Source: Streptomyces sp. LUP30
Lineage (GTDB): Bacteria; Actinomycetota; Actinomycetes; Streptomycetales; Streptomycetaceae
Assembly: GCF_001746365.1 (NCBI RefSeq)
Contig: NZ_MJAJ01000003.1
Location: 188,251-252,250 of the forward strand
Length of the DNA stretch: 64,000 bases
Direction of reading: 5' to 3'
Every line of letters starts with the position of its first letter. The first letter of the stretch is position 1. This document shows positions 10,543-57,582 of the stretch, one piece after another. Under the pieces are notes generated by a model. The model was not told where the DNA came from. It made no database searches and saw only the letters and a program-made list of their open reading frames with translations. The translations under genes and the position numbers were made by a program.

Positions 10543-11813
10543 GCCTTGATCAGCTCGGCGTCGTGCAGGGCGTCGGCCGCGGCGGCGACGGCGGCGAACG
10601 GCAGCCCGGCCCGCTCGGCGACGTCCAGCAGGGTGTGCTCGCCGTCGGAGAGGCTCAGCACCCAGAGCATGGCCATCTGGGCCTGTTTCGCGTCGCTGCG
10701 GCCGCCGAGCGAGTCGTACAGCCCGCGCCGGCCCAGCTGCGGTTCGCCGTACGGGCTGAGGTTGACGTACGTCCGGTTGCGGTCGAGGACGGCGAACGCC
10801 TCGCGGCAGACGGCGAGGGTGTCCTCCATCGCCTCGGGTGCGACGAAGTCCAGGTTGTCGGCCGAGGTGTGGTACTCGGGGTACCCCGCGTAGGGGGTCC
10901 GGCTGAGCGAGCCCACGCCGAGATCGAACCCGGGCGAGCAGTACTGCCGCTCGTCATAGCCGTACGGAGTGAACTCGGTGATGCGGTGCGGGCGTTCGGA
11001 GGCTGCCAGCACATGCCGCAGCACCCGGTCGATCTCCGCGTCGCCGCGCCTGCTCCGCTTGTACGTCAGCCGGCCCGGGTCGCCGGCGCAGGCCAGCACG
11101 AGGCCGTGCGCGACCCGTTGCACCCGTTCCGCGTTGCGGGCCAGCCAGGTGATCGCCCCGATGGTGCCGGGCGCGAAGATGAACCGGTAGGTGTAGTACG
11201 GCGTCTCCTCCGCCAGCGCCCGCGCCAGGAACACGGCCACCGCGACGCCGGCCAGGTTGTCGTTGGCCAGCGAAGGGTGGCAGACGTGGCAGGAGACGAT
11301 GACCTCGTCGGCGACCTGCCCGGGGACCACGTGCTCGGCGTAGGTGAGGTGGCCGTCGGCGAGCGTGGAGTCGATGCGCACCTCGTACTCGCCGTCCGGC
11401 ATCGAGTCCAGGGTGTCCTGGGACAGGCAGAACCCCCACTCCGGCCGGTAGTAGCTGGTGCGGTACGGCACCCAGGACGGGTGGTCCGGCAGGGTGTGCA
11501 GATGTGGCCGCAGCTCGGCCAGCGGCATCGTCGCCGACACCGGCACGCTGTAGCCGAGCACATGCAGGCTGGACGCGGCGAAGTCGACGACCCGGCGTCC
11601 GGAGCCGTCGGCGATGTACGCGTCCCGGATGTTCCACTCCTGCGGCACCGTCCAGTCGAGGACCTGCGTCCCGGTCGGCACCTCGTGCACCTGCAGCGGG
11701 ACGTACTCGCCGACGATGTCCAGGGTCGCGCGCACCCCGTCGCCGGTGATGCTCCGGCACAGCGGGTACATCCGCTCCACCAGCGCGTACATCTCCTCGC
11801 CGGGCGTGGTCAC
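10539..11813 (-). CDS. DUF4910/DUF2172 aminopeptidase-like protein of polysaccharide clusters
   Basis: 424 residues; GTG 11813 overlaps the upstream epimerase stop (GTGA). The N-terminus (MYPLCRSITGDGVRATL, WTVPQEWNIRDAYI) is characteristic of this family, which is common in O-antigen and capsule clusters. The M28-like metal block SCHVCHPSLANDNLAG is intact. Further on, most relatives I recall have an acidic residue in PETIG, while this protein reads FAPGTIGAITWL, so one metal or catalytic acid may be missing. The C-terminal ~60 residues look like a small winged-helix-like domain (EHTLLDVAERAGLPF). Function is unproven; removal or remodelling of an amide-linked substituent is one possibility. 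Confidence 0.8.
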   Translation of the reverse strand: MTTPGEEMYALVERMYPLCRSITGDGVRATLDIVGEYVPLQVHEVPTGTQVLDWTVPQEWNIRDAYIADGSGRRVVDFAASSLHVLGYSVPVSATMPLAELRPHLHTLPDHPSWVPYRTSYYRPEWGFCLSQDTLDSMPDGEYEVRIDSTLADGHLTYAEHVVPGQVADEVIVSCHVCHPSLANDNLAGVAVAVFLARALAEETPYYTYRFIFAPGTIGAITWLARNAERVQRVAHGLVLACAGDPGRLTYKRSRRGDAEIDRVLRHVLAASERPHRITEFTPYGYDERQYCSPGFDLGVGSLSRTPYAGYPEYHTSADNLDFVAPEAMEDTLAVCREAFAVLDRNRTYVNLSPYGEPQLGRRGLYDSLGGRSDAKQAQMAMLWVLSLSDGEHTLLDVAERAGLPFAAVAAAADALHDAELIKA

Positions 11814-48799: not shown

Positions 48800-50365
48800 G
48801 TGTTCCTGACCATCAGCACCACCGGCGCTCCCGAACGCCCCGCGACCGACCTCGGCTTCCTGCTGCACAAGCATCCCGAAAAATCGCAGGCGTTCTCCAC
48901 CTCCTACGGCACGGCCCACGTCCTCTATCCCGAGGCCGACGCCGAGCGCTGCACGGCGGCGCTGCTGCTGGAGGTGGACGCCGTGGCGCTGGTCCGGCGC
49001 GGCAAGGGCAAGGGCCGCGGCGGCGCTCCCGACGCGGCCCTCGCCCAGTACGTCAACGACCGCCCCTACGCGGCCTCCTCGCTGCTGGCGGTCGCGTTGA
49101 GCGGGGTGTTCTCCAGCGCGATGCGCGGCGTGTGCGCCGCGAGGCCCGAACTCCCCGCGCAGACAAGGCCGTTGCGCGTCGAGATACCCGCACTGCCTGC
49201 CCGTGGCGGCCCCGGTCTGGTCCATGCCCTCTTCGAACCGCTCGGCTGGCGGGTGAGCGCCGAACCGGTGGCCCTCGACCCCCGGTTCCCGCAGTGGGGC
49301 GACTCGAGGTACGTGAGCCTGACCCTGGAATCGGAGACGCTCACCGTCGCCGAGACCCTGCGCCACCTGTACGTCCTGCTGCCGGTCCTCGACGACGCCA
49401 AGCACTACTGGGTGTCGCCCGACGAGGTCGACAAGCTGCTGCGCGCCGGTGCGGGCTGGCTGCCCGACCACCCCGAGCAGAAGCTGATCACCAGCCGTTT
49501 CCTGTCCCGCCGCTGGTCGCTGACTCGGCAGGCGATGGAGCGGCTGGAATTGGTCCGTCTCGCCGAGTCCGACGACAGCGACGTCGAGGACATCGACAAC
49601 GCGGTCGAGGCGGAGGCCGAGACACAGGAGAAGCCGACGCCGCTGGCCGATCAGCGCCGCGAGGCCGTCGTCACCGCGCTGACCCGCGCCGGGGCCGCCC
49701 GGGTCCTCGACCTCGGCTGCGGCCAGGGCCAGTTGGTGCAGACACTGCTGCAGAACCCGCGGTTCACCGAGATCGTCGGTGTCGACGTGTCGATGCGCGC
49801 CCTCGCCATCGCCTCGCGCCGGCTGAAGCTGGACCGCATGGGGGAGCGGCAGGCCTCCCGTGTCCAGCTCCTGCAGGGCTCGCTGGCGTACACCGACACC
49901 CGTCTCAAGGGTTACGACGCGGCCGTGCTCAGCGAGGTGATCGAGCACCTCGACCTGCCCCGGCTGCCCGCGCTGGAGTACGCGGTGTTCGGCTCGGCCC
50001 GTCCGCGCACGGTCCTGGTGACCACCCCGAACGTGGAGTACAACGTCCGCTGGGAGAGCCTCCCGGCCGGCCACCGCCGGCACGGCGACCACCGTTTCGA
50101 GTGGACCCGGCAGGAGTTCCGCGCCTGGGCCGCCGCGGTCGCCCGACGGCACGGTTACGACGTCCGGTTCGTGCCCGTCGGCCCGGACGACCCCGAGGTC
50201 GGCCCGCCCACCCAGATGGCCGTGTTCGAGATGAACGCGCCCGGCGCGAAGAACAGGACCACCCGACGCGAGAACGCCGGGAACGAAGGCGCCGACGAGG
50301 CCGCCGGGAACGAGGGCGCCGGGAACGGCTCCGAGAAGAGCGCGAAGGAGGCGAAGGCGGCATGA
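48800..50365 (+). CDS. hen1: Bacterial Hen1, 3'-terminal RNA ribose 2'-O-methyltransferase
   Basis: 521 residues from GTG 48800, chosen because bacterial Hen1 proteins begin FLTISTTGAPERPATDLGF, as here. The N-terminal half is the Hen1_L domain (LLHKHPEKSQAFST). The C-terminal half is a SAM methyltransferase (VLDLGCGQGQLVQTLL, EIVGVDVSMRAL) with the metal-binding EVIEHLD and the later HRRHGDHRFEW. It 2'-O-methylates the repaired RNA 3' end so that it resists re-cleavage. It overlaps pnkp (ATGA). The C-terminal ~40 residues are Glu/Ala/Asn-rich low complexity. Confidence 0.93.
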   Translation: MFLTISTTGAPERPATDLGFLLHKHPEKSQAFSTSYGTAHVLYPEADAERCTAALLLEVDAVALVRRGKGKGRGGAPDAALAQYVNDRPYAASSLLAVALSGVFSSAMRGVCAARPELPAQTRPLRVEIPALPARGGPGLVHALFEPLGWRVSAEPVALDPRFPQWGDSRYVSLTLESETLTVAETLRHLYVLLPVLDDAKHYWVSPDEVDKLLRAGAGWLPDHPEQKLITSRFLSRRWSLTRQAMERLELVRLAESDDSDVEDIDNAVEAEAETQEKPTPLADQRREAVVTALTRAGAARVLDLGCGQGQLVQTLLQNPRFTEIVGVDVSMRALAIASRRLKLDRMGERQASRVQLLQGSLAYTDTRLKGYDAAVLSEVIEHLDLPRLPALEYAVFGSARPRTVLVTTPNVEYNVRWESLPAGHRRHGDHRFEWTRQEFRAWAAAVARRHGYDVRFVPVGPDDPEVGPPTQMAVFEMNAPGAKNRTTRRENAGNEGADEAAGNEGAGNGSEKSAKEAKAA

Positions 50366-52956
50366 GCGACACCCAGGCTTCCGCCACGCCGGGCCGTGTC
50401 CTGCCCGTCACCGACCTGTCCCTCGTCGTGCTCGTCGGCGCGTCCGGCTCCGGCAAGTCCACGTTCGCACGTCGCCACTTCAAGCCCACCGAGGTCATCT
50501 CCTCCGACTTCTGCCGAGGCCTCGTCTCCGACGACGAGAACGACCAGAGCGCCACCCGGGACGCCTTCGACGTCCTGCACTACATCGCCGGCAAGCGGCT
50601 CGCGGCCGGCCGCCGCACGGTGGTCGACGCCACCAGCGTGCAGCCGGACGCCCGCCGCCGGCTGATCGACCTCGCCAAGCAGCACGACGTGCTGCCCATC
50701 GCCATCGTCCTGGACGTCCCGGAAGAGGTGTGCGCCGCACGCAACGCGTCGCGCACCGACCGCGCCGACATGCCCCGCCGGGTCATCCAGCGCCACATCC
50801 GCGAACTGCGGCGCTCGCTGCGGCACCTGGAACGCGAGGGCTTCCGCAAGGTGCACGTCCTGCGCGGCGCCGAGGCCGTCGAGAACGCCTCCGTCGTCAC
50901 CGAGAAGCGCTACAACGACCTGACCCACCTCACCGGGCCCTTCGACGTCATCGGCGACATCCACGGCTGCTCCTCCGAACTGGAGTCGCTGCTGGCCAAG
51001 TTGGGCTACACGGACGGCGTGCACCCCGAAGGCCGCCAGGCCGTCTTCGTCGGCGACCTGGTGGACCGGGGCCCGGACAGCCCCGGGGTGCTGCGCCGCG
51101 TGATGTCGATGGTCGCGTCCGGAGACGCACTGTGCGTGCCCGGCAACCACGAGAACAAGTACGGCCGGTATCTCAAGGGCCGCAACGTCCAGCACACGCA
51201 CGGGCTCGCCGAGACCATCGAGCAGATGGACGGGGAGAGCGACGAGTTCCGCGCCGAGGTGCGCACGTTCATCGACGGGCTGGTCAGTCACTACGTCCTC
51301 GACGGCGGCAGGCTCGTCGTCTGCCACGCCGGCCTGCCGGAGAAGTACCACGGCCGCACCTCCGGCCGGGTCCGCTCGCACGCGCTCTACGGCGAAACCA
51401 CCGGCGAGACCGACGAGTTCGGCCTGCCCGTGCGCTACCCGTGGGCGGAGGACTACCGGGGGCGCGCGGCGGTCGTCTACGGCCACACGCCCGTTCCGGA
51501 GGCGACCTGGCTGAACAACACGATCTGCCTGGACACCGGCGCCGTCTTCGGCGGCAAGCTCACCGCGCTGCGCTGGCCGGAACGCGAGCTGGTCGACGTA
51601 CCGGCGGAGCAGGTCTGGTACGAGCCGGCGAGACCGCTGCGCTCGGAGGCGCCCGGCGGACACGACGGCCGTCCGCTGGACCTGGCGGACGTCCATGGCC
51701 GACGCATCGTAGAAACCCGTTACGAAGGCCACAACCGTGTCTCCATCCGTGAGGAGAACGCGGCGGCGGCCCTGGAGGTGATGAGCCGCTTCGCGGTCGA
51801 CCCGCGCCTGCTGCCGTATCTCCCGCCGACGATGGCCCCCACGGCCACCAGCCATGTGGACGGCTACCTGGAGCACCCGGCGGAGGCGTTCGCGCAGTAC
51901 GCCCGCGACGGCGTCGCACGGGTCGTGTGCGAGGAGAAGCACATGGGATCCCGGGCGGTGGTCCTGGTCTGCCGCGACGCGGAGACAGCACGTAAGCGTT
52001 TCGGCGCCGGGGGCGCCTCCCGCCCGGGCGCGACCGGGAGCGGGGGAGGCCCCACCGGCTCCCTGTACACCCGTACCGGTCGCCCGTTCTTCGACGACGA
52101 GACGGTGACGGAGGAGATCCTCGGGCGGGTGCGCACGGCGGTGGAGGAGGCCGGCCTGTGGTCGGAACTGGACACCGACTGGCTGCTGCTGGACGCGGAG
52201 CTGATGCCGTGGTCGCTGAAGGCGTCGGGCCTGCTGCGCTCCCAGTACGCGGCCGTGGGGGCCGCGTCCGGCGCCGTCCTCCCGAGCGCGGTGGCCGCCC
52301 TGGAGTCCGCCGCGGCCAGAGGTGTGGACGTCGCCGGCCTGCTCGCACGCCAGCGTGAACGCGCCTCGGACGCGGCCGCGTTCACCGAGGCGTACCGCCG
52401 CTACTGCTGGACGACCGACGGCCTGGACGGCGTACGGCTGGCCCCGTTCCAGATCCTCGCCGTCCAGGGCCGCAGCCTCGCGGCGCTGCCGCACGACGAG
52501 CAGCTGGCGCTCCTCGACCGGTTGGTGGAACACGACAACACGGGCCTGCTCCAGACCACCCGGCGGCTGTATGTCGACACGGGCGACGCCGAGTCGGTGC
52601 GATCCGGTGTCGACTGGTGGCTGGAGATGACCGGCCGGGGCGGCGAGGGCATGGTCGTCAAGCCGCTGGGCGCCCTGGTCCGCGGCGAGGGCGGACGCCT
52701 GGTCCAGCCCGGCGTCAAGTGCCGGGGTCGCGAGTACCTGCGGATCATCTACGGCCCCGAGTACACCCGCCCTGACAACCTGGCCCGGCTGCGTGGCCGT
52801 TTCCTGAACCACAAGCGGTCGCTGGCGATCCGCGAGTACGCCCTCGGCCTGGAGGCCCTGGCCCGTCTGGCGGAGGGCGAGCCACTGTGGCGCGTCCACG
52901 AGGCGGTGTTCGGCGTGCTGGCTCTGGAGTCGGAGCCGGTGGACCCGCGGCTGTGA
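50362..52956 (+). CDS. pnkp: Polynucleotide kinase-phosphatase-ligase of the Pnkp/Hen1 RNA repair system
   Basis: 864 residues in three modules. The kinase (1-180) has the P-loop GASGSGKST with Lys32. The phosphatase (about 190-440) has GDIHGC (Asp199, His201), GDLVDRG (Asp232) and GNHEN. The ligase/adenylyltransferase (about 470-864) has the nucleotidyl lysine Lys526 in EEKHMGSRAVVL and GMVVKPLG. It heals and seals tRNA cut by ribotoxins. The ATG overlaps the hen1 stop (ATGA), as in the known Pnkp-Hen1 operons. Followed by a strong hairpin. Confidence 0.95.
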   Translation: MSDTQASATPGRVLPVTDLSLVVLVGASGSGKSTFARRHFKPTEVISSDFCRGLVSDDENDQSATRDAFDVLHYIAGKRLAAGRRTVVDATSVQPDARRRLIDLAKQHDVLPIAIVLDVPEEVCAARNASRTDRADMPRRVIQRHIRELRRSLRHLEREGFRKVHVLRGAEAVENASVVTEKRYNDLTHLTGPFDVIGDIHGCSSELESLLAKLGYTDGVHPEGRQAVFVGDLVDRGPDSPGVLRRVMSMVASGDALCVPGNHENKYGRYLKGRNVQHTHGLAETIEQMDGESDEFRAEVRTFIDGLVSHYVLDGGRLVVCHAGLPEKYHGRTSGRVRSHALYGETTGETDEFGLPVRYPWAEDYRGRAAVVYGHTPVPEATWLNNTICLDTGAVFGGKLTALRWPERELVDVPAEQVWYEPARPLRSEAPGGHDGRPLDLADVHGRRIVETRYEGHNRVSIREENAAAALEVMSRFAVDPRLLPYLPPTMAPTATSHVDGYLEHPAEAFAQYARDGVARVVCEEKHMGSRAVVLVCRDAETARKRFGAGGASRPGATGSGGGPTGSLYTRTGRPFFDDETVTEEILGRVRTAVEEAGLWSELDTDWLLLDAELMPWSLKASGLLRSQYAAVGAASGAVLPSAVAALESAAARGVDVAGLLARQRERASDAAAFTEAYRRYCWTTDGLDGVRLAPFQILAVQGRSLAALPHDEQLALLDRLVEHDNTGLLQTTRRLYVDTGDAESVRSGVDWWLEMTGRGGEGMVVKPLGALVRGEGGRLVQPGVKCRGREYLRIIYGPEYTRPDNLARLRGRFLNHKRSLAIREYALGLEALARLAEGEPLWRVHEAVFGVLALESEPVDPRL

Positions 52957-53004: not shown

Positions 53005-53919
53005 TCACCCCACCAGCCGCAACCGCTCCTCGCACACCCCGACACGGACCCGCTGACCCCACGTCAGCTCCACCGCGTCGGTCTCGATGCCGTCGCCGAA
53101 GGCGATGAGCCGCTCCGACTCGACGGTGAGGGTCAGCCGGTGGCCGGCCGCCAGTTCGCCCGCCACCAGCGAGGTGCCGGTGGCCGGGGACGGCCACGCC
53201 TCCCGCACGAACCACACCAGCCGCTGCTCCGTCGGGGCCGGCAGGCGCAGGTCGCCGTCCGTCCGGCCGCCGCCCCGCTCCTGCCACACCGACCGGATCC
53301 AGCCGGTCGCCCCCGTGCCCGTGCCCACCAGCACCCCGGAGGAGGCCTGGGCCTCGACGGCACCCCCGTCGTCGTCGAGGCCCAGGCGGTAGCGGGCGGT
53401 CTGGTGGCCGGCGGCGCCGAGATAGATCTCGTTGAGGGCCAGCAGCCGCTGGGTGTCGTCGGCCACGGCCTCCACCATGGTCAGCTCGGTCGTTCCGGTG
53501 CCGGCCGCGAGCGCGCCGGGCAGAAGCGTCGGCGCGTCCGCCGGGCGATGGCGGACCAGGACGCCCGCATTGCGGCCCGGGTCCGCGTCGATGCCCACCA
53601 CGGGCTGCCCGGACAGGTACTTGGCGACGTTCGCCACCAACCCGTCCTGGCCGACGACCACCACCACGTCCTCCGGCGCGAACAGAAAACGGTCCAGATC
53701 GGCGCGCTCCACCCGGCTCTGACGCCAGGTCAGCGGTATCGCCGCCGTCACCTCCGCCAGCGCGCGCCGCATGCGGCGGTGGCGCTCGGCGACCTCCTCG
53801 ATGTCCCGGCCCCGCGAGGAGAGGAAGAAGGCGGCCTGGCCGTGCGTGCCGTGCCGGGCCACCAACTCCTCGTACTCCGTGGTGCGGTGGACCAGCACGG
53901 CCCGCGGGGCGAGACTCAT
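53005..53919 (-). CDS. Degenerate NAD kinase-fold protein paired with SPFH
   Basis: 304 residues. The fold is recognisable: VVVVVGQDGLVANVAKYL (88-102), VVGIDADPGRNAGVL, NEIYLG with Asn163-Glu164, and GVLVGTGTGATGW (195-207). The NAD-kinase signature GGDGT is altered to GQDGL (90-94), so catalysis may be lost or changed. It overlaps the SPFH gene (ATGA), an arrangement that implies a membrane-associated complex. It may bind a nucleotide as a sensor (inference). Ends in a hairpin shared with pnkp. Confidence 0.82.
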   Translation of the reverse strand: MSLAPRAVLVHRTTEYEELVARHGTHGQAAFFLSSRGRDIEEVAERHRRMRRALAEVTAAIPLTWRQSRVERADLDRFLFAPEDVVVVVGQDGLVANVAKYLSGQPVVGIDADPGRNAGVLVRHRPADAPTLLPGALAAGTGTTELTMVEAVADDTQRLLALNEIYLGAAGHQTARYRLGLDDDGGAVEAQASSGVLVGTGTGATGWIRSVWQERGGGRTDGDLRLPAPTEQRLVWFVREAWPSPATGTSLVAGELAAGHRLTLTVESERLIAFGDGIETDAVELTWGQRVRVGVCEERLRLVG

Positions 53920-55052
53920 TCCCGTTCTCCGGCCCCGAGCCTCGACAGCAGGCCGGTCAGGACGTCCGGCGAGATCGTCACGCTGTCGATGTGCGGCAGG
54001 TTCTCCGCGAGCCGTGTCCCGGTGAGCGCGTGCAGGGTCGCCACGTCGACGTCCCCGTGCACCCGCAGCCAGGCCGCCTGTGCCTCGGCCCGCGCCTCGC
54101 CGACCTCGCGCGCCGCCTCCGCCTCGGCCCGGGCGAGCCGGACCGTGCGCGTCGCCTCCGCCTGGCTCAGCCGCTCGGTGCGCTGGGCCTCGGCGTCCGC
54201 CAGGCGCACCTGCCTGTCGGCCTCCGCCTCGGCGAGCTTCACCGACCGCGCGGCCTCCGCCTCCGCCAGCCGCACGGACCGCGTCGCCTCCGCCTCCGCC
54301 CGCACCTTGTCCGCGGCCGCGTTCTCCTCCGCCTCGCGGCGGGTGTTCGTACCCCGCTGCTCGACCAACTGCTCCTCACGGCGGGCCAGTTCGATCTGGC
54401 TGGCGAGTTCGTTCTCGGCGATCGTCCGCTCCCGCTCGACGGCCACCGCCCGCCGCTCGTAGGTGGCCCGGTCGGCCTCCTGCTGGATCTGCTCGCGCGC
54501 CGGGGTCCGCAGCGCCCGCTCCACCTCGGGTTCCGGACGCAGCGCGACGACCCGGACGGCGACGATCTCGATGCCGGTGGCCGGCAGACGCGGTTCCGCC
54601 GCCAGCCCCGCCGCCACCCGCTCCCGCACCGCCGTCACGCCGTCCACCAGCGCCGACGACAGCGGGGTGCGCGCGAGGACGTCCAGCGCGTGCTGCTGAG
54701 CCGTCTCCGTGAGCAGGGTGCCGAGCTGCTCCAGGGGCGCGCCGCGCCAGATCCCGGTGTCCGGGTCGATGGAGAAGTCGAGGCGGGCCGCGGCGACGGC
54801 CGGGTCGCTGACCCGGTAGGTCACCGTCGCCTGCACCGTCACATCCTGGAAGTCGACCGTGCGGGCGTGGAAGGTCATCGCCAACTCCCGGTCGTCAACC
54901 GGCACTTCGGAGAGGGCGGCGCTCAGTGAGCGGAACCAGAAGCTGAGCCCCGGACCGTCGTGCGCCAGCTTGCCGGAGCGGTGGTGGCGCACATGGGCCG
55001 TCGGAGCACCGCGCAGATGGCGCCAGCCCAGGCGCCGGGTGATGTCGGCCAT
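53916..55052 (-). CDS. SPFH/band 7 (stomatin-like) protein
   Basis: 378 residues. The SPFH core is LAMTFHARTVDFQDVTVQATVTYRV and PATGIEIVAVRVVAL. From about residue 200 a long charged coiled coil runs to about 330 (EEQLVEQRGTNTRREAEEN; repeated AEAEATRSVRLAEAEAARS units). There is no clear N-terminal transmembrane helix, so it may sit on the membrane through another segment or partner. First gene of a two-gene operon; two inverted repeats lie directly upstream of its start. Confidence 0.88.
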   Translation of the reverse strand: MADITRRLGWRHLRGAPTAHVRHHRSGKLAHDGPGLSFWFRSLSAALSEVPVDDRELAMTFHARTVDFQDVTVQATVTYRVSDPAVAAARLDFSIDPDTGIWRGAPLEQLGTLLTETAQQHALDVLARTPLSSALVDGVTAVRERVAAGLAAEPRLPATGIEIVAVRVVALRPEPEVERALRTPAREQIQQEADRATYERRAVAVERERTIAENELASQIELARREEQLVEQRGTNTRREAEENAAADKVRAEAEATRSVRLAEAEAARSVKLAEAEADRQVRLADAEAQRTERLSQAEATRTVRLARAEAEAAREVGEARAEAQAAWLRVHGDVDVATLHALTGTRLAENLPHIDSVTISPDVLTGLLSRLGAGERE

Positions 55053-55071
55053 GAAAGGCCCCCCTCGTTCC

Positions 55072-55099
55072 TTTTCTCGTCACTGCGACGATAAGAAAA
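55072..55099. promoter_or_regulatory. Operator-like inverted repeat 1 upstream of the SPFH gene
   Basis: TTTTCTCGTC, 5-nt spacer, GACGATAAGAAAA: the right arm carries a 3-nt insertion relative to the left. It lies 20 bp upstream of the SPFH start and shares arms with the perfect repeat at 55118-55138. Confidence 0.6.
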
Positions 55100-55117
55100 C
55101 GATATCCGCGCCTCCTC

Positions 55118-55138
55118 TTCTCGTCAAGGGGACGAGAA
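55118..55138. promoter_or_regulatory. Operator-like inverted repeat 2 upstream of the SPFH gene
   Basis: TTCTCGTC (55118-55125), 5-nt spacer, GACGAGAA (55131-55138): perfect 8-bp arms. Its centre is about 44 bp from that of repeat 1, close to four helical turns. This fits two dimers of one regulator binding the same DNA face in the SPFH/arcA divergent region. Confidence 0.65.
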
Positions 55139-55244: not shown

Positions 55245-56468
55245 ATGGGATTCCACGTCGACTCCGAGGCCGGGCGGCTGCGCCGCGTCATCCTGCACCG
55301 GCCTGATCTCGAGCTCAAAAGGCTCACCCCCAGCAACAAGGACGCCCTCCTCTTCGACGACGTGCTCTGGGTGCGCCGGGCGCGCGCCGAGCACGACGGG
55401 TTCGCCGACGTGCTGCGCGACCGCGGTGTCGCCGTCCATCTCTTCGGTGACCTGCTCACCGAGGCCCTGGAGATCCCGCAGGCCCGAGCGCTCGTCCTGG
55501 ACCGCGTCTTCGACGAGAAGGAGTACGGGGTGCTCGCCACCGACCACCTCCGCTCCGCCTTCGAGACCCTCCCCGCCCCGGAACTGGCCGAGGCCCTGGT
55601 CGGCGGCATGACCAAGCGGGAGTTTCTGCAAGCGCATCCCGAACCCACCTCCGTGCGCTTCCACGTCATGGAACTCGACGACTTCCTCCTCGACCCGCTC
55701 CCCAACCACCTCTTCACCCGGGACACCTCCGCCTGGATCTATGACGGCGTCGCCATCAACGCCATGCGCTGGCCGGCCAGGCAGCGCGAGACGGTCCACT
55801 TCGAGGCGATCTACCGGCACCATCCGCTCTTCCGCGCCGAGACGTTCCGCGTCTGGTCCGAGGGGCAGGCCGACTATCCGTCCACCATCGAGGGCGGCGA
55901 CGTCCTCGTCATCGGCAACGGCGCCGTGCTGATCGGCATGAGCGAGCGCACCACCCCGCAGGCCGTCGAGATGCTCGCCCACAAGCTGTTCGCCGCGGGC
56001 TCGGCCCAGACCATCGTGGCGCTCGACATGCCCAAGCGGCGGGCGTTCATGCACCTCGACACCGTGATGACGATGGTCGACGCCGACGTCTTCACCCAGT
56101 ACGCCGGGCTCGGCATGCTCCGGTCGTACACCATCGAGCCCGGCGCCGGCGAGAAGGAGCTGAAGGTCACCGACCATCCGCCGGAGCACATGCACCGCGC
56201 GATCGCCGCGGCCCTCGGGCTCAGTGAGATCCGCGTGCTCACCGCAACCCAGGACGTCCACGCGGCCGAGCGTGAGCAGTGGGACGACGGCTGCAACGTC
56301 CTCGCCGTCGAACCGGGTGTCGTCGTCGCCTATGAACGCAACGTCACCACCAACACGCATCTGCGCAAGCAGGGCGTCGAAGTGATCGAGATCCCGGGCA
56401 GCGAGCTGGGCCGGGGCAGGGGCGGTCCGCGCTGCATGAGCTGCCCGGTCGAACGGAGCGCCGTATAG
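55245..56468 (+). CDS. arcA: Arginine deiminase
   Basis: 407 residues; GGATGGAGG is just before ATG 55245. Conserved blocks are present: [64 protein letters not shown] with the catalytic His/Asp, and the C-terminal [13 protein letters not shown] with the catalytic Cys. It converts arginine to citrulline and ammonia. The ornithine carbamoyltransferase gene follows 106 bp later, completing the first two steps of the ADI pathway. No carbamate kinase gene is in the window. Confidence 0.95.
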
Positions 56469-56574: not shown

Positions 56575-57582
56575 ATGGCGACAGTCCCGACCGCCCTCGC
56601 CGGCCGCCACTTTGTCAAGGAGCTGGACTTCACCGGGGAGGAGTTCCGCGGTCTGATCGCCCTGGCCGCCGAACTGAAGGCCGACAAGAAGGCCGGGACC
56701 GAGAACCGGCGCCTGCAGGGCAGGAACATCGCGCTGATCTTCGAGAAGACCTCGACGCGCACCCGCTGCGCGTTCGAGGTCGCCGCCGCCGACCAGGGCG
56801 CGTCGACCACCTACCTCGACCCCTCCGGCTCGCAGATCGGCCACAAGGAGTCGGTGAAGGACACCGCGCGGGTGCTGGGCCGGATGTACGACGCCATCGA
56901 GTACCGCGGCGACAGCCAGGACAAGGTCGAGGAGTTCGCCGCCCACGCGGGCGTCCCCGTCTACAACGGTCTCACCGACGACTGGCACCCCACCCAGATG
57001 CTCGCCGACGTGCTCACGATGACCGAGCACAGCGCCAAGCCCCTGACCGAGATCGCCTTCGCCTACCTCGGCGACGCCCGCTTCAACATGGGCAACTCCT
57101 ACCTGGTCACCGGCGCCCTCCTCGGCATGGACGTGCGGATCGTCGCCCCGAAGAGCTACTGGCCCGCCCAGGAGATCGTCGACCGAGCCCGCGAGCTCGC
57201 CGAGGCGAGCGGCGCCCGCGTCACCCTCACCGAGGAACTCGCCGAGGGCGTCCTCGGCGCCGACTTCGTCGCCACCGACGTGTGGGTGTCCATGGGGGAG
57301 CCCAAGGACGTCTGGGACGAGCGGATCGCGGCCCTCGGCCCGTACGCGGTGACCATGGACGTCCTGCGCGCCACGGGCAACCCCGACGTCAAGTTCCTGC
57401 ACTGCCTTCCGGCCTTCCACGACCTCGGCACCGAAGTCGGCCGCGAGATCCACGAGAGCCACGGCCTGGACTGCCTGGAGGTGACGGACGAGGTGTTCGA
57501 GTCGGCCCACTCCGTCGTCTTCGACGAGGCGGAGAACCGGCTGCACACGATCAAGGCCGTCCTGGTCGCCACCCTCGCCTGA
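56575..57582 (+). CDS. argF: Ornithine carbamoyltransferase
   Basis: 335 residues. The carbamoyl-phosphate loop is [44 protein letters not shown] and the ornithine-binding HCLPAFHD with Cys are intact. It makes citrulline from ornithine, or runs in reverse in the ADI pathway. The catabolic-type N-terminus ([16 protein letters not shown]) and the arcA neighbour suggest the ADI role, in which case arcB would be the better name. A 9-bp hairpin follows the stop. Confidence 0.94.

What the first reader, a model, noticed from the sequence alone, without database searches (positions are those of the whole stretch)
53005..55138. SPFH + degenerate NAD kinase operon under a twin operator
The kinase motif GGDGT is GQDGL while the rest of the fold persists, and the gene is fused by overlap to a coiled-coil SPFH protein. 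Two TTCTCGTC-N5-GACGAGAA-type repeats about four turns apart precede the operon, and no regulator is adjacent. This looks like a nucleotide-sensing membrane complex with its own regulon.
Basis: partly seen in the sequence, partly recalled or inferred. Interest (0 to 1): 0.6.

Follow-up and report, generated by a model that had tools for sequence, protein, structure and literature searches.

The report
NAD-regulated scaffold and kinase-like gene pair
A soil bacterium carries a conserved pair of genes, a ring-forming scaffold protein and an unusual NAD-kinase-like protein, that appears to be switched on by the cell's NAD-shortage regulator (NrtR) together with the NAD-making genes, pointing to an uncharacterised part of how these bacteria manage NAD.

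Summary
In detail: SPFH gene (53916-55052, -) overlapping a NAD-kinase-like gene (53005-53919, -) by 4 nt, under two TTnTCGTC-N5-GACGAnAA palindromes 44 bp apart, far above chance. The operators do not mark a private regulon: they match sites of NrtR, the Nudix-family repressor of NAD metabolism. The same palindrome lies 31 bp before an nrtR gene 144 kb away on the same contig, before nadA and before pncB, each conserved in 29-30 of 30 Streptomyces checked; in distant Actinomycetota nrtR itself adjoins the SPFH-kinase pair with the palindrome between them. The promoter appears built into the operators, so NrtR should repress. The kinase is not decaying: GQDGL is invariant in 53 of 53 relatives, the catalytic Asp, the NE motif and the NADK2-type loop are kept, and its predicted fold best matches human mitochondrial NADK2. 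The SPFH protein has no transmembrane segment but a predicted HflK/C-flotillin-vault fold. Best reading: an NrtR-repressed scaffold plus NADK2-like protein acting on NAD-type nucleotides, induced when NAD is consumed. Regulation is well supported computationally; enzyme activity, complex formation and membrane location are untested.

The parts
53005..53919 (-). NADK2-like protein, 304 aa, GQDGL signature (residues 90-94), NE at 163-164, SSGVLVGTGTGATGW at 193-207
53916..55052 (-). SPFH/Band_7 protein, 378 aa, no transmembrane segment, long helix 175-331; stop overlaps the kinase start (ATGA)
55074..55094 (.). proximal operator (op2), NrtR-type palindrome TTCTCGTCACTGCGACGATAA
55118..55138 (.). 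distal operator (op1), NrtR-type palindrome TTCTCGTCAAGGGGACGAGAA
55122..55127 (-). inferred -35 element TTGACG, inside op1
   Evidence: inference from conservation and spacing
55099..55104 (-). inferred -10 element TATCGT, 17 bp from the -35, just upstream of op2 (in most relatives it lies inside op2)
   Evidence: inference
55245..56468 (+). divergent arginine deiminase gene (neighbour, not counted as part of the unit; followed by ornithine carbamoyltransferase 56575-57582)

Best explanation
The two genes form an NrtR-controlled operon of NAD homeostasis. NrtR (a Nudix domain plus a winged helix, encoded 144 kb away) binds both palindromes; the distal one covers the -35 and the proximal one covers or abuts the -10, so it represses. 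When NAD+ is broken down and ADP-ribose rises (or NAD+ falls), NrtR lets go and the operon is made together with nadA (de novo synthesis) and pncB (salvage). The SPFH protein oligomerises into a ring or cage of the HflK/C-flotillin-vault type that holds the NADK2-like protein, which binds, and most probably phosphorylates, an NAD-type nucleotide (NAD+ itself or a close relative). Shown by computation: operon structure, operator conservation, shared operator with nrtR, nadA and pncB, nrtR adjacency in distant lineages, predicted folds. Inferred: NrtR binding, ADP-ribose as inducer, catalysis, the complex.
For: Operators conserved with near-fixed spacing (33/34 bp or 44/45 bp) upstream of SPFH in nearly all of 78 Streptomyces loci; of 12 loci where no arginine deiminase was found, 8 keep both operators, 3 keep the distal one with a drifted proximal one, and 1 (L066) has neither at 3 or fewer mismatches. 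In the 61-genome panel every genome with the kinase-like gene whose upstream DNA was read carries sites with at most 2 mismatches there (L226's contig ends first), and the 20 Streptomyces genomes without the gene carry no exact site. The regulator gene (NUDIX + NrtR_WHD; NCBIfam best hit 'ADPR responsive transcriptional repressor', below its cut-off) has the same palindrome at -31 in 29 of 30 loci, abutting a TATGAT box, and present in L170 too. The palindrome lies upstream of nadA in 29/30 (2 or fewer mismatches) and of pncB in 30/30 (3 or fewer), with 0/30 for the reversed control in each; pncB and nadE also have perfect sites in genomes of a related family. NrtR genes lie beside the SPFH-kinase pair in L270, L272, L273 and L274, with a palindrome in between in the first three; in L272 two sites 34 bp apart. 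Kinase model: best PDB match human mitochondrial NADK2, Z 18.4 over 263 residues; profile search E 1.2e-13. SPFH model: HflK/C, stomatin, flotillin, vault. Residues shown vital in M. tuberculosis PpnK (Asp of GGDG, Asn and Glu of NE) are kept (PMC8553519). NrtR in Mycobacterium represses nadABC and is released by ADP-ribose (PMC6800001).
Against: No binding, expression or enzyme data. The actinobacterial NrtR relative NdnR binds better with NAD+ (PMC6800001), so the effector could be NAD+ and not ADP-ribose. The second Gly of the GGDG motif, described as conserved in all NAD kinases in PMC8553519, is Gln here, and Pfam's NAD_kinase model scores only 15.4 bits (cut-off 25.5), so catalysis may be lost. 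The genome has a canonical NAD kinase (C91:9608). The pncB and nadA sites in this genome carry 2 mismatches.
Confidence: 0.6

Rival explanations
1. The kinase-like protein is a catalytically dead NAD-type nucleotide sensor that signals through the SPFH scaffold.
For: Gly to Gln in the phosphate-binding loop is invariant in 53/53 relatives; a canonical NAD kinase exists elsewhere; always encoded with an SPFH partner where the contig reaches.
Against: The proton-abstracting Asp, the NE pair, the conserved region II and F.DG are all invariant too, more than a pure binder would need; Leu after GGDG occurs in alpha-proteobacterial NAD kinases (PMC8553519).
Confidence: 0.3
2. It is an active kinase with a changed acceptor or donor, for example phosphorylating ADP-ribose or nicotinic acid adenine dinucleotide, or using polyphosphate, to remove or mark NAD breakdown products.
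For: Altered but invariant loop with the remaining catalytic residues kept; control by a regulator family that responds to ADP-ribose (PMC6800001).
Against: No direct evidence of the acceptor; the conserved region II looks like that of NADK2, a true NAD kinase.
Confidence: 0.25
3. The operators serve the divergent arginine deiminase operon, and the SPFH pair is a bystander.
For: The intergenic region is shared, and the distal operator lies about 106 bp before the deiminase start.
Against: Operators stay close to SPFH in loci where no arginine deiminase was found, and in other genera with quite different neighbours; the promoter built from the operators points to SPFH.
Confidence: 0.03
4. A different regulator binds the palindromes and the link with nrtR, nadA and pncB is coincidental, or the second NrtR paralogue is the main regulator.
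For: No binding data; in four species the proximal operator drifts toward TTA[AG]AGTC, like the left half of the second paralogue's operator.
Against: The second paralogue has its own different palindrome TTATAGTC-N5-GACTATTA; it was not found in genomes G464 and G465, whose operons keep the first type; the adjacent NrtR proteins of L270 and L272 are closer to the first paralogue (66 and 68% identity).
Confidence: 0.07
5. The pair is an anti-phage defence system using NAD.
For: Nucleotide theme; in genomes of a related family the same palindrome precedes SIR2 proteins, one of them matching a defence candidate.
Against: No PADLOC hit for either protein; conserved chromosomal context, slow evolution with changes concentrated at third codon positions.
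Confidence: 0.06

Closest known systems
NrtR (Nudix-related transcriptional regulator) regulon, e.g. M. smegmatis MsNrtR-nadABC (PMC6800001)
   Same: Nudix + winged-helix regulator; palindromic operators before its own gene and NAD genes (nadA, pncB)
   Different: Operator sequence differs (mycobacterial GTTTTCGA-N7-TCGAAAAC); an added SPFH-kinase target; twin operators; the Nudix box of this NrtR reads as intact (GFVRADEDLTQAAARELAEETGL), whereas MsNrtR's is altered
Human mitochondrial NAD kinase NADK2 (7r4l and relatives)
   Same: Predicted fold, Asp of GxDG, NE motif, SSG...TGTG..(A/G)W loop
   Different: GGDGT is GQDGL; about 21% identity; bacterial operon partner
SPFH proteins HflK/C, stomatin, flotillin, QmcA, major vault protein
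   Same: SPFH domain followed by a long helix; predicted fold matches all of them
   Different: No transmembrane segment; the gene partner is a NADK-like protein rather than NfeD or FtsH
ADP-ribosylglycohydrolase systems with Nudix regulators (PMC9503650, section 3.8)
   Same: A Nudix repressor presumed to sense ADP-ribose controls NAD-linked genes; the second NrtR paralogue here sits beside such a gene
   Different: The SPFH-kinase operon has no glycohydrolase, phosphatase or chaperone genes

Membership tests
NrtR regulon | A NUDIX + NrtR winged-helix regulator in the genome | tested here: met
   PF00293 75.6 bits, PF21906 53.5 bits; found in 36 of 37 Streptomyces panel genomes
NrtR regulon | Same palindrome before the regulator's own gene | tested here: met
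   30 of 30 loci
NrtR regulon | Same palindrome before NAD synthesis or salvage genes | tested here: met
   nadA 29/30, pncB 30/30, reversed control 0/30 each
NrtR regulon | Regulator binds the operator and responds to ADP-ribose | not testable with these tools
   needs gel shift
NAD kinase family | NAD kinase fold | tested here: met
   NADK2 Z 18.4, bacterial NADKs about Z 16
NAD kinase family | Three conserved motifs: GGDG, NE/D, conserved region II (PMC8553519) | tested here: inconclusive
   NE met; region II present in NADK2-like form; GGDG is GQDG, so strictly not met, but Asp and both flanking Gly kept
NAD kinase family | Passes the Pfam NAD_kinase cut-off | tested here: not met
   15.4 bits against 25.5
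NAD kinase family | Phosphorylates NAD+ | not testable with these tools
   needs assay
SPFH/Band 7 | SPFH domain over the Pfam cut-off | tested here: met
   59.9 bits against 23.6; fold
SPFH/Band 7 | Predicted transmembrane segment (most subfamilies, not all; PMC2636767) | tested here: not met
   highest 19-residue hydropathy 0.97 in the window, up to 1.45 in Streptomyces orthologues; model starts with strands
Known anti-phage defence system | Match to a defence protein model | tested here: not met
   no PADLOC hit for either protein

The most novel reading that the evidence does not exclude
A cage-forming SPFH scaffold that houses a NADK2-like enzyme with a new reaction (for example 2'-phosphorylation of ADP-ribose or another NAD breakdown product), produced only when NAD is being consumed: a NAD-salvage or NAD-damage compartment under NrtR.
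Probability: 0.15. Interest if true: 0.85.

Novelty: new variant of a known kind. Interest (0 to 1): 0.5.

Why it matters
It assigns a regulator and a pathway (NAD homeostasis) to a gene pair that is widespread in Streptomyces and found in distant Actinomycetota, predicts an NrtR operator sequence for these bacteria, and makes two questions directly testable: whether a NADK2-type protein works with a Gln in its catalytic loop, and whether SPFH scaffolds organise NAD metabolism. No paper in the searched open-licence library mentions NrtR and SPFH together, but the key NrtR regulon paper (Rodionov 2008) was not held, so a prior prediction cannot be excluded.

Tried and rejected
Private regulon: rejected, the palindrome is shared with nrtR, nadA and pncB. 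Operators for the arginine deiminase operon: rejected (kept without it). Decaying kinase gene: rejected (invariant motif; codon positions 1 and 2 conserved against 3). Defence system: no PADLOC hit. The second NrtR paralogue as main regulator: disfavoured, it has its own operator. Weak one- and two-mismatch palindromes elsewhere in the genome (for example before leuS, L120) were looked at and taken as chance, apart from pncB and nadA. Link with the Pnkp/Hen1 RNA repair genes: conserved synteny in many Streptomyces only, absent from the other genera examined, so not taken as functional. The Rodionov 2008 NrtR paper could not be read. The SPFH protein has no solved-structure sequence match beyond the coiled-coil part of QmcA.

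Full report
Observation. The kinase-like ORF (53005-53919, -) starts inside the stop of the SPFH ORF (53916-55052, -), an ATGA overlap kept in 72 of 77 relatives. The palindromes at 55074-55094 and 55118-55138 are the only matches to TTnTCGTC-N5-GACGAnAA in the window (2 found, 0.09 expected with 2 mismatches allowed) and the only exact matches in the 9.18-Mb genome.

Conservation. A genome scan with the kinase-like protein returned 80 Streptomyces loci. SPFH lies upstream wherever the contig reaches; arginine deiminase and ornithine carbamoyltransferase are divergent in most, and the RNA repair genes Pnkp and Hen1 are convergent in many. Upstream of SPFH, both operators recur with a spacing of 34 bp (58 loci) or 33 bp (10); the window's clade has 44 or 45 bp, i.e. 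one helical turn more, and two loci have 36 or 37. Of 12 loci where no arginine deiminase was found, 8 keep both operators and 3 keep the distal one with a drifted proximal one; L066 is the exception. So the operators belong to the SPFH operon. The distal operator carries TTGACG, and TATCGT (TAAAGT, TAGAGT, TATGGT or TATCTT in a few) follows at 17 or 18 bp, inside the proximal operator in the 34-bp type and just before it in the window's type. Because these boxes overlap the operator arms the count is not independent evidence, but the -10 box persists where the proximal operator has drifted (L056, L066, L076, L095) or moved (the 44/45-bp clade). NrtR bound there should block RNA polymerase; this is inference.

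Regulator. Searching the motif in 61 related genomes showed it before pncB-pncA, nadE, SIR2-type genes and SPFH-kinase operons in another family of the order. In the window's own genome a one-mismatch site sits 31 bp before a gene for a NUDIX + NrtR_WHD protein on the same contig (C56:99069). The same palindrome is at -31 of that gene in 29 of 30 Streptomyces and present in the thirtieth. Two further weak sites in this genome lie before nadA and pncB; checked in 30 Streptomyces each, nadA has the site in 29 with at most 2 mismatches and pncB in 30 with at most 3, while the reversed motif gives none. A second NrtR paralogue, next to an ADP-ribosylglycohydrolase gene, has a different palindrome, TTATAGTC-N5-GACTATTA. 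In four distant Actinomycetota the NrtR gene is next to the SPFH-kinase pair; three of them have a palindrome in between, and in L272 two sites sit 34 bp apart as in Streptomyces. L271, another distant genome, has the pair without a recognised site in the fetched stretch. I therefore take NrtR as the regulator with high confidence (about 0.9).

Kinase-like protein. It is a coherent family, not a wreck: GQDGL is invariant in 53 aligned members (GPDGL in L272, outside that alignment), and so are N163-E164, SSG at 193-195, the GTGTGATGW loop apart from two Thr/Ser positions, and F.DG at 274-277. Codon positions 1 and 2 are conserved against position 3. The AlphaFold2 model (pLDDT 84, pTM 0.80) matches human mitochondrial NADK2 best and bacterial NAD kinases next; the sequence profile agrees. 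In M. tuberculosis PpnK the Asp of GGDG and the Asn-Glu pair are vital, and in Listeria NADK1 the Asp takes the proton from the 2'-hydroxyl (PMC8553519); all are kept. What is changed is the second Gly (to Gln) and the following Thr (to Leu; Leu is seen in alpha-proteobacterial NAD kinases, same source). The genome also has a canonical NAD kinase, so this is an additional protein. Sequence cannot decide whether it is active.

SPFH protein. It has no transmembrane segment, a variable-length helical region (333-414 aa in total), and its model matches HflK/C, stomatin, flotillin, erlin and the major vault protein. Flotillins lack classical transmembrane helices too (own knowledge), so membrane contact is open.

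Mechanism. Best reading: NrtR represses the operon; NAD breakdown (ADP-ribose, as for MsNrtR, PMC6800001) or low NAD (compare NdnR, same source) relieves repression along with nadA and pncB; the scaffold gathers the NADK2-like protein, which handles an NAD-type nucleotide. Regulation about 0.9; a role on NAD-type nucleotides about 0.7; active kinase about 0.55 in total, divided between NAD+ and another acceptor; scaffold complex about 0.6.

Novelty. NrtR regulons, NADK2-type kinases and SPFH scaffolds are known kinds; their combination appears unreported in the library searched, but the key regulon paper was not available. I rate it a new variant of a known kind, interest 0.5.

Noticed in passing
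G000:C91:30594-31356 (L207:3594-5400): Second NrtR paralogue followed by an ADP-ribosylglycohydrolase gene, with its own palindrome TTATAGTC-N5-GACTATTA just upstream; resembles the glycohydrolase-centred systems proposed in PMC9503650.
   Followed up: partly
L056, L066, L076, L095 upstream of SPFH: The proximal operator reads TTA[AG]AGTC-N5-GAC..., similar in its left half to the second NrtR paralogue's operator, hinting at dual control by both paralogues in these species.
   Followed up: partly
L136:4537-6454 and L145:4265-6148: A perfect NrtR-type palindrome precedes SIR2-like proteins (L136 matches a PADLOC defence candidate, PDC-S65), suggesting NAD-linked control of candidate NAD-consuming defence genes.
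   Followed up: no
L131, L133, L135, L137, L139, L144: The palindrome precedes a conserved pair: an unnamed protein (MGSGRWDYNAYEAAEAYR..., no Pfam or NCBIfam hit in L131) and an adenylosuccinate-synthetase-like protein.
   Followed up: no
window 48800-52956 (+): Bacterial Hen1 and Pnkp RNA repair genes convergent with the operon; the neighbourhood is conserved in many Streptomyces but not in the other genera examined.
   Followed up: partly
window 53916-55052, helical region: Repeat-like AEAxRxVRL stretch in the SPFH helix; total length varies from 333 to 414 aa among close relatives.
   Followed up: no
L141:4570-4590 and 11009-11029 (genome G013): Two perfect TTATCGTC-N5-GACGATAA palindromes 6.4 kb apart in a region without recognised NAD genes.
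   Followed up: no
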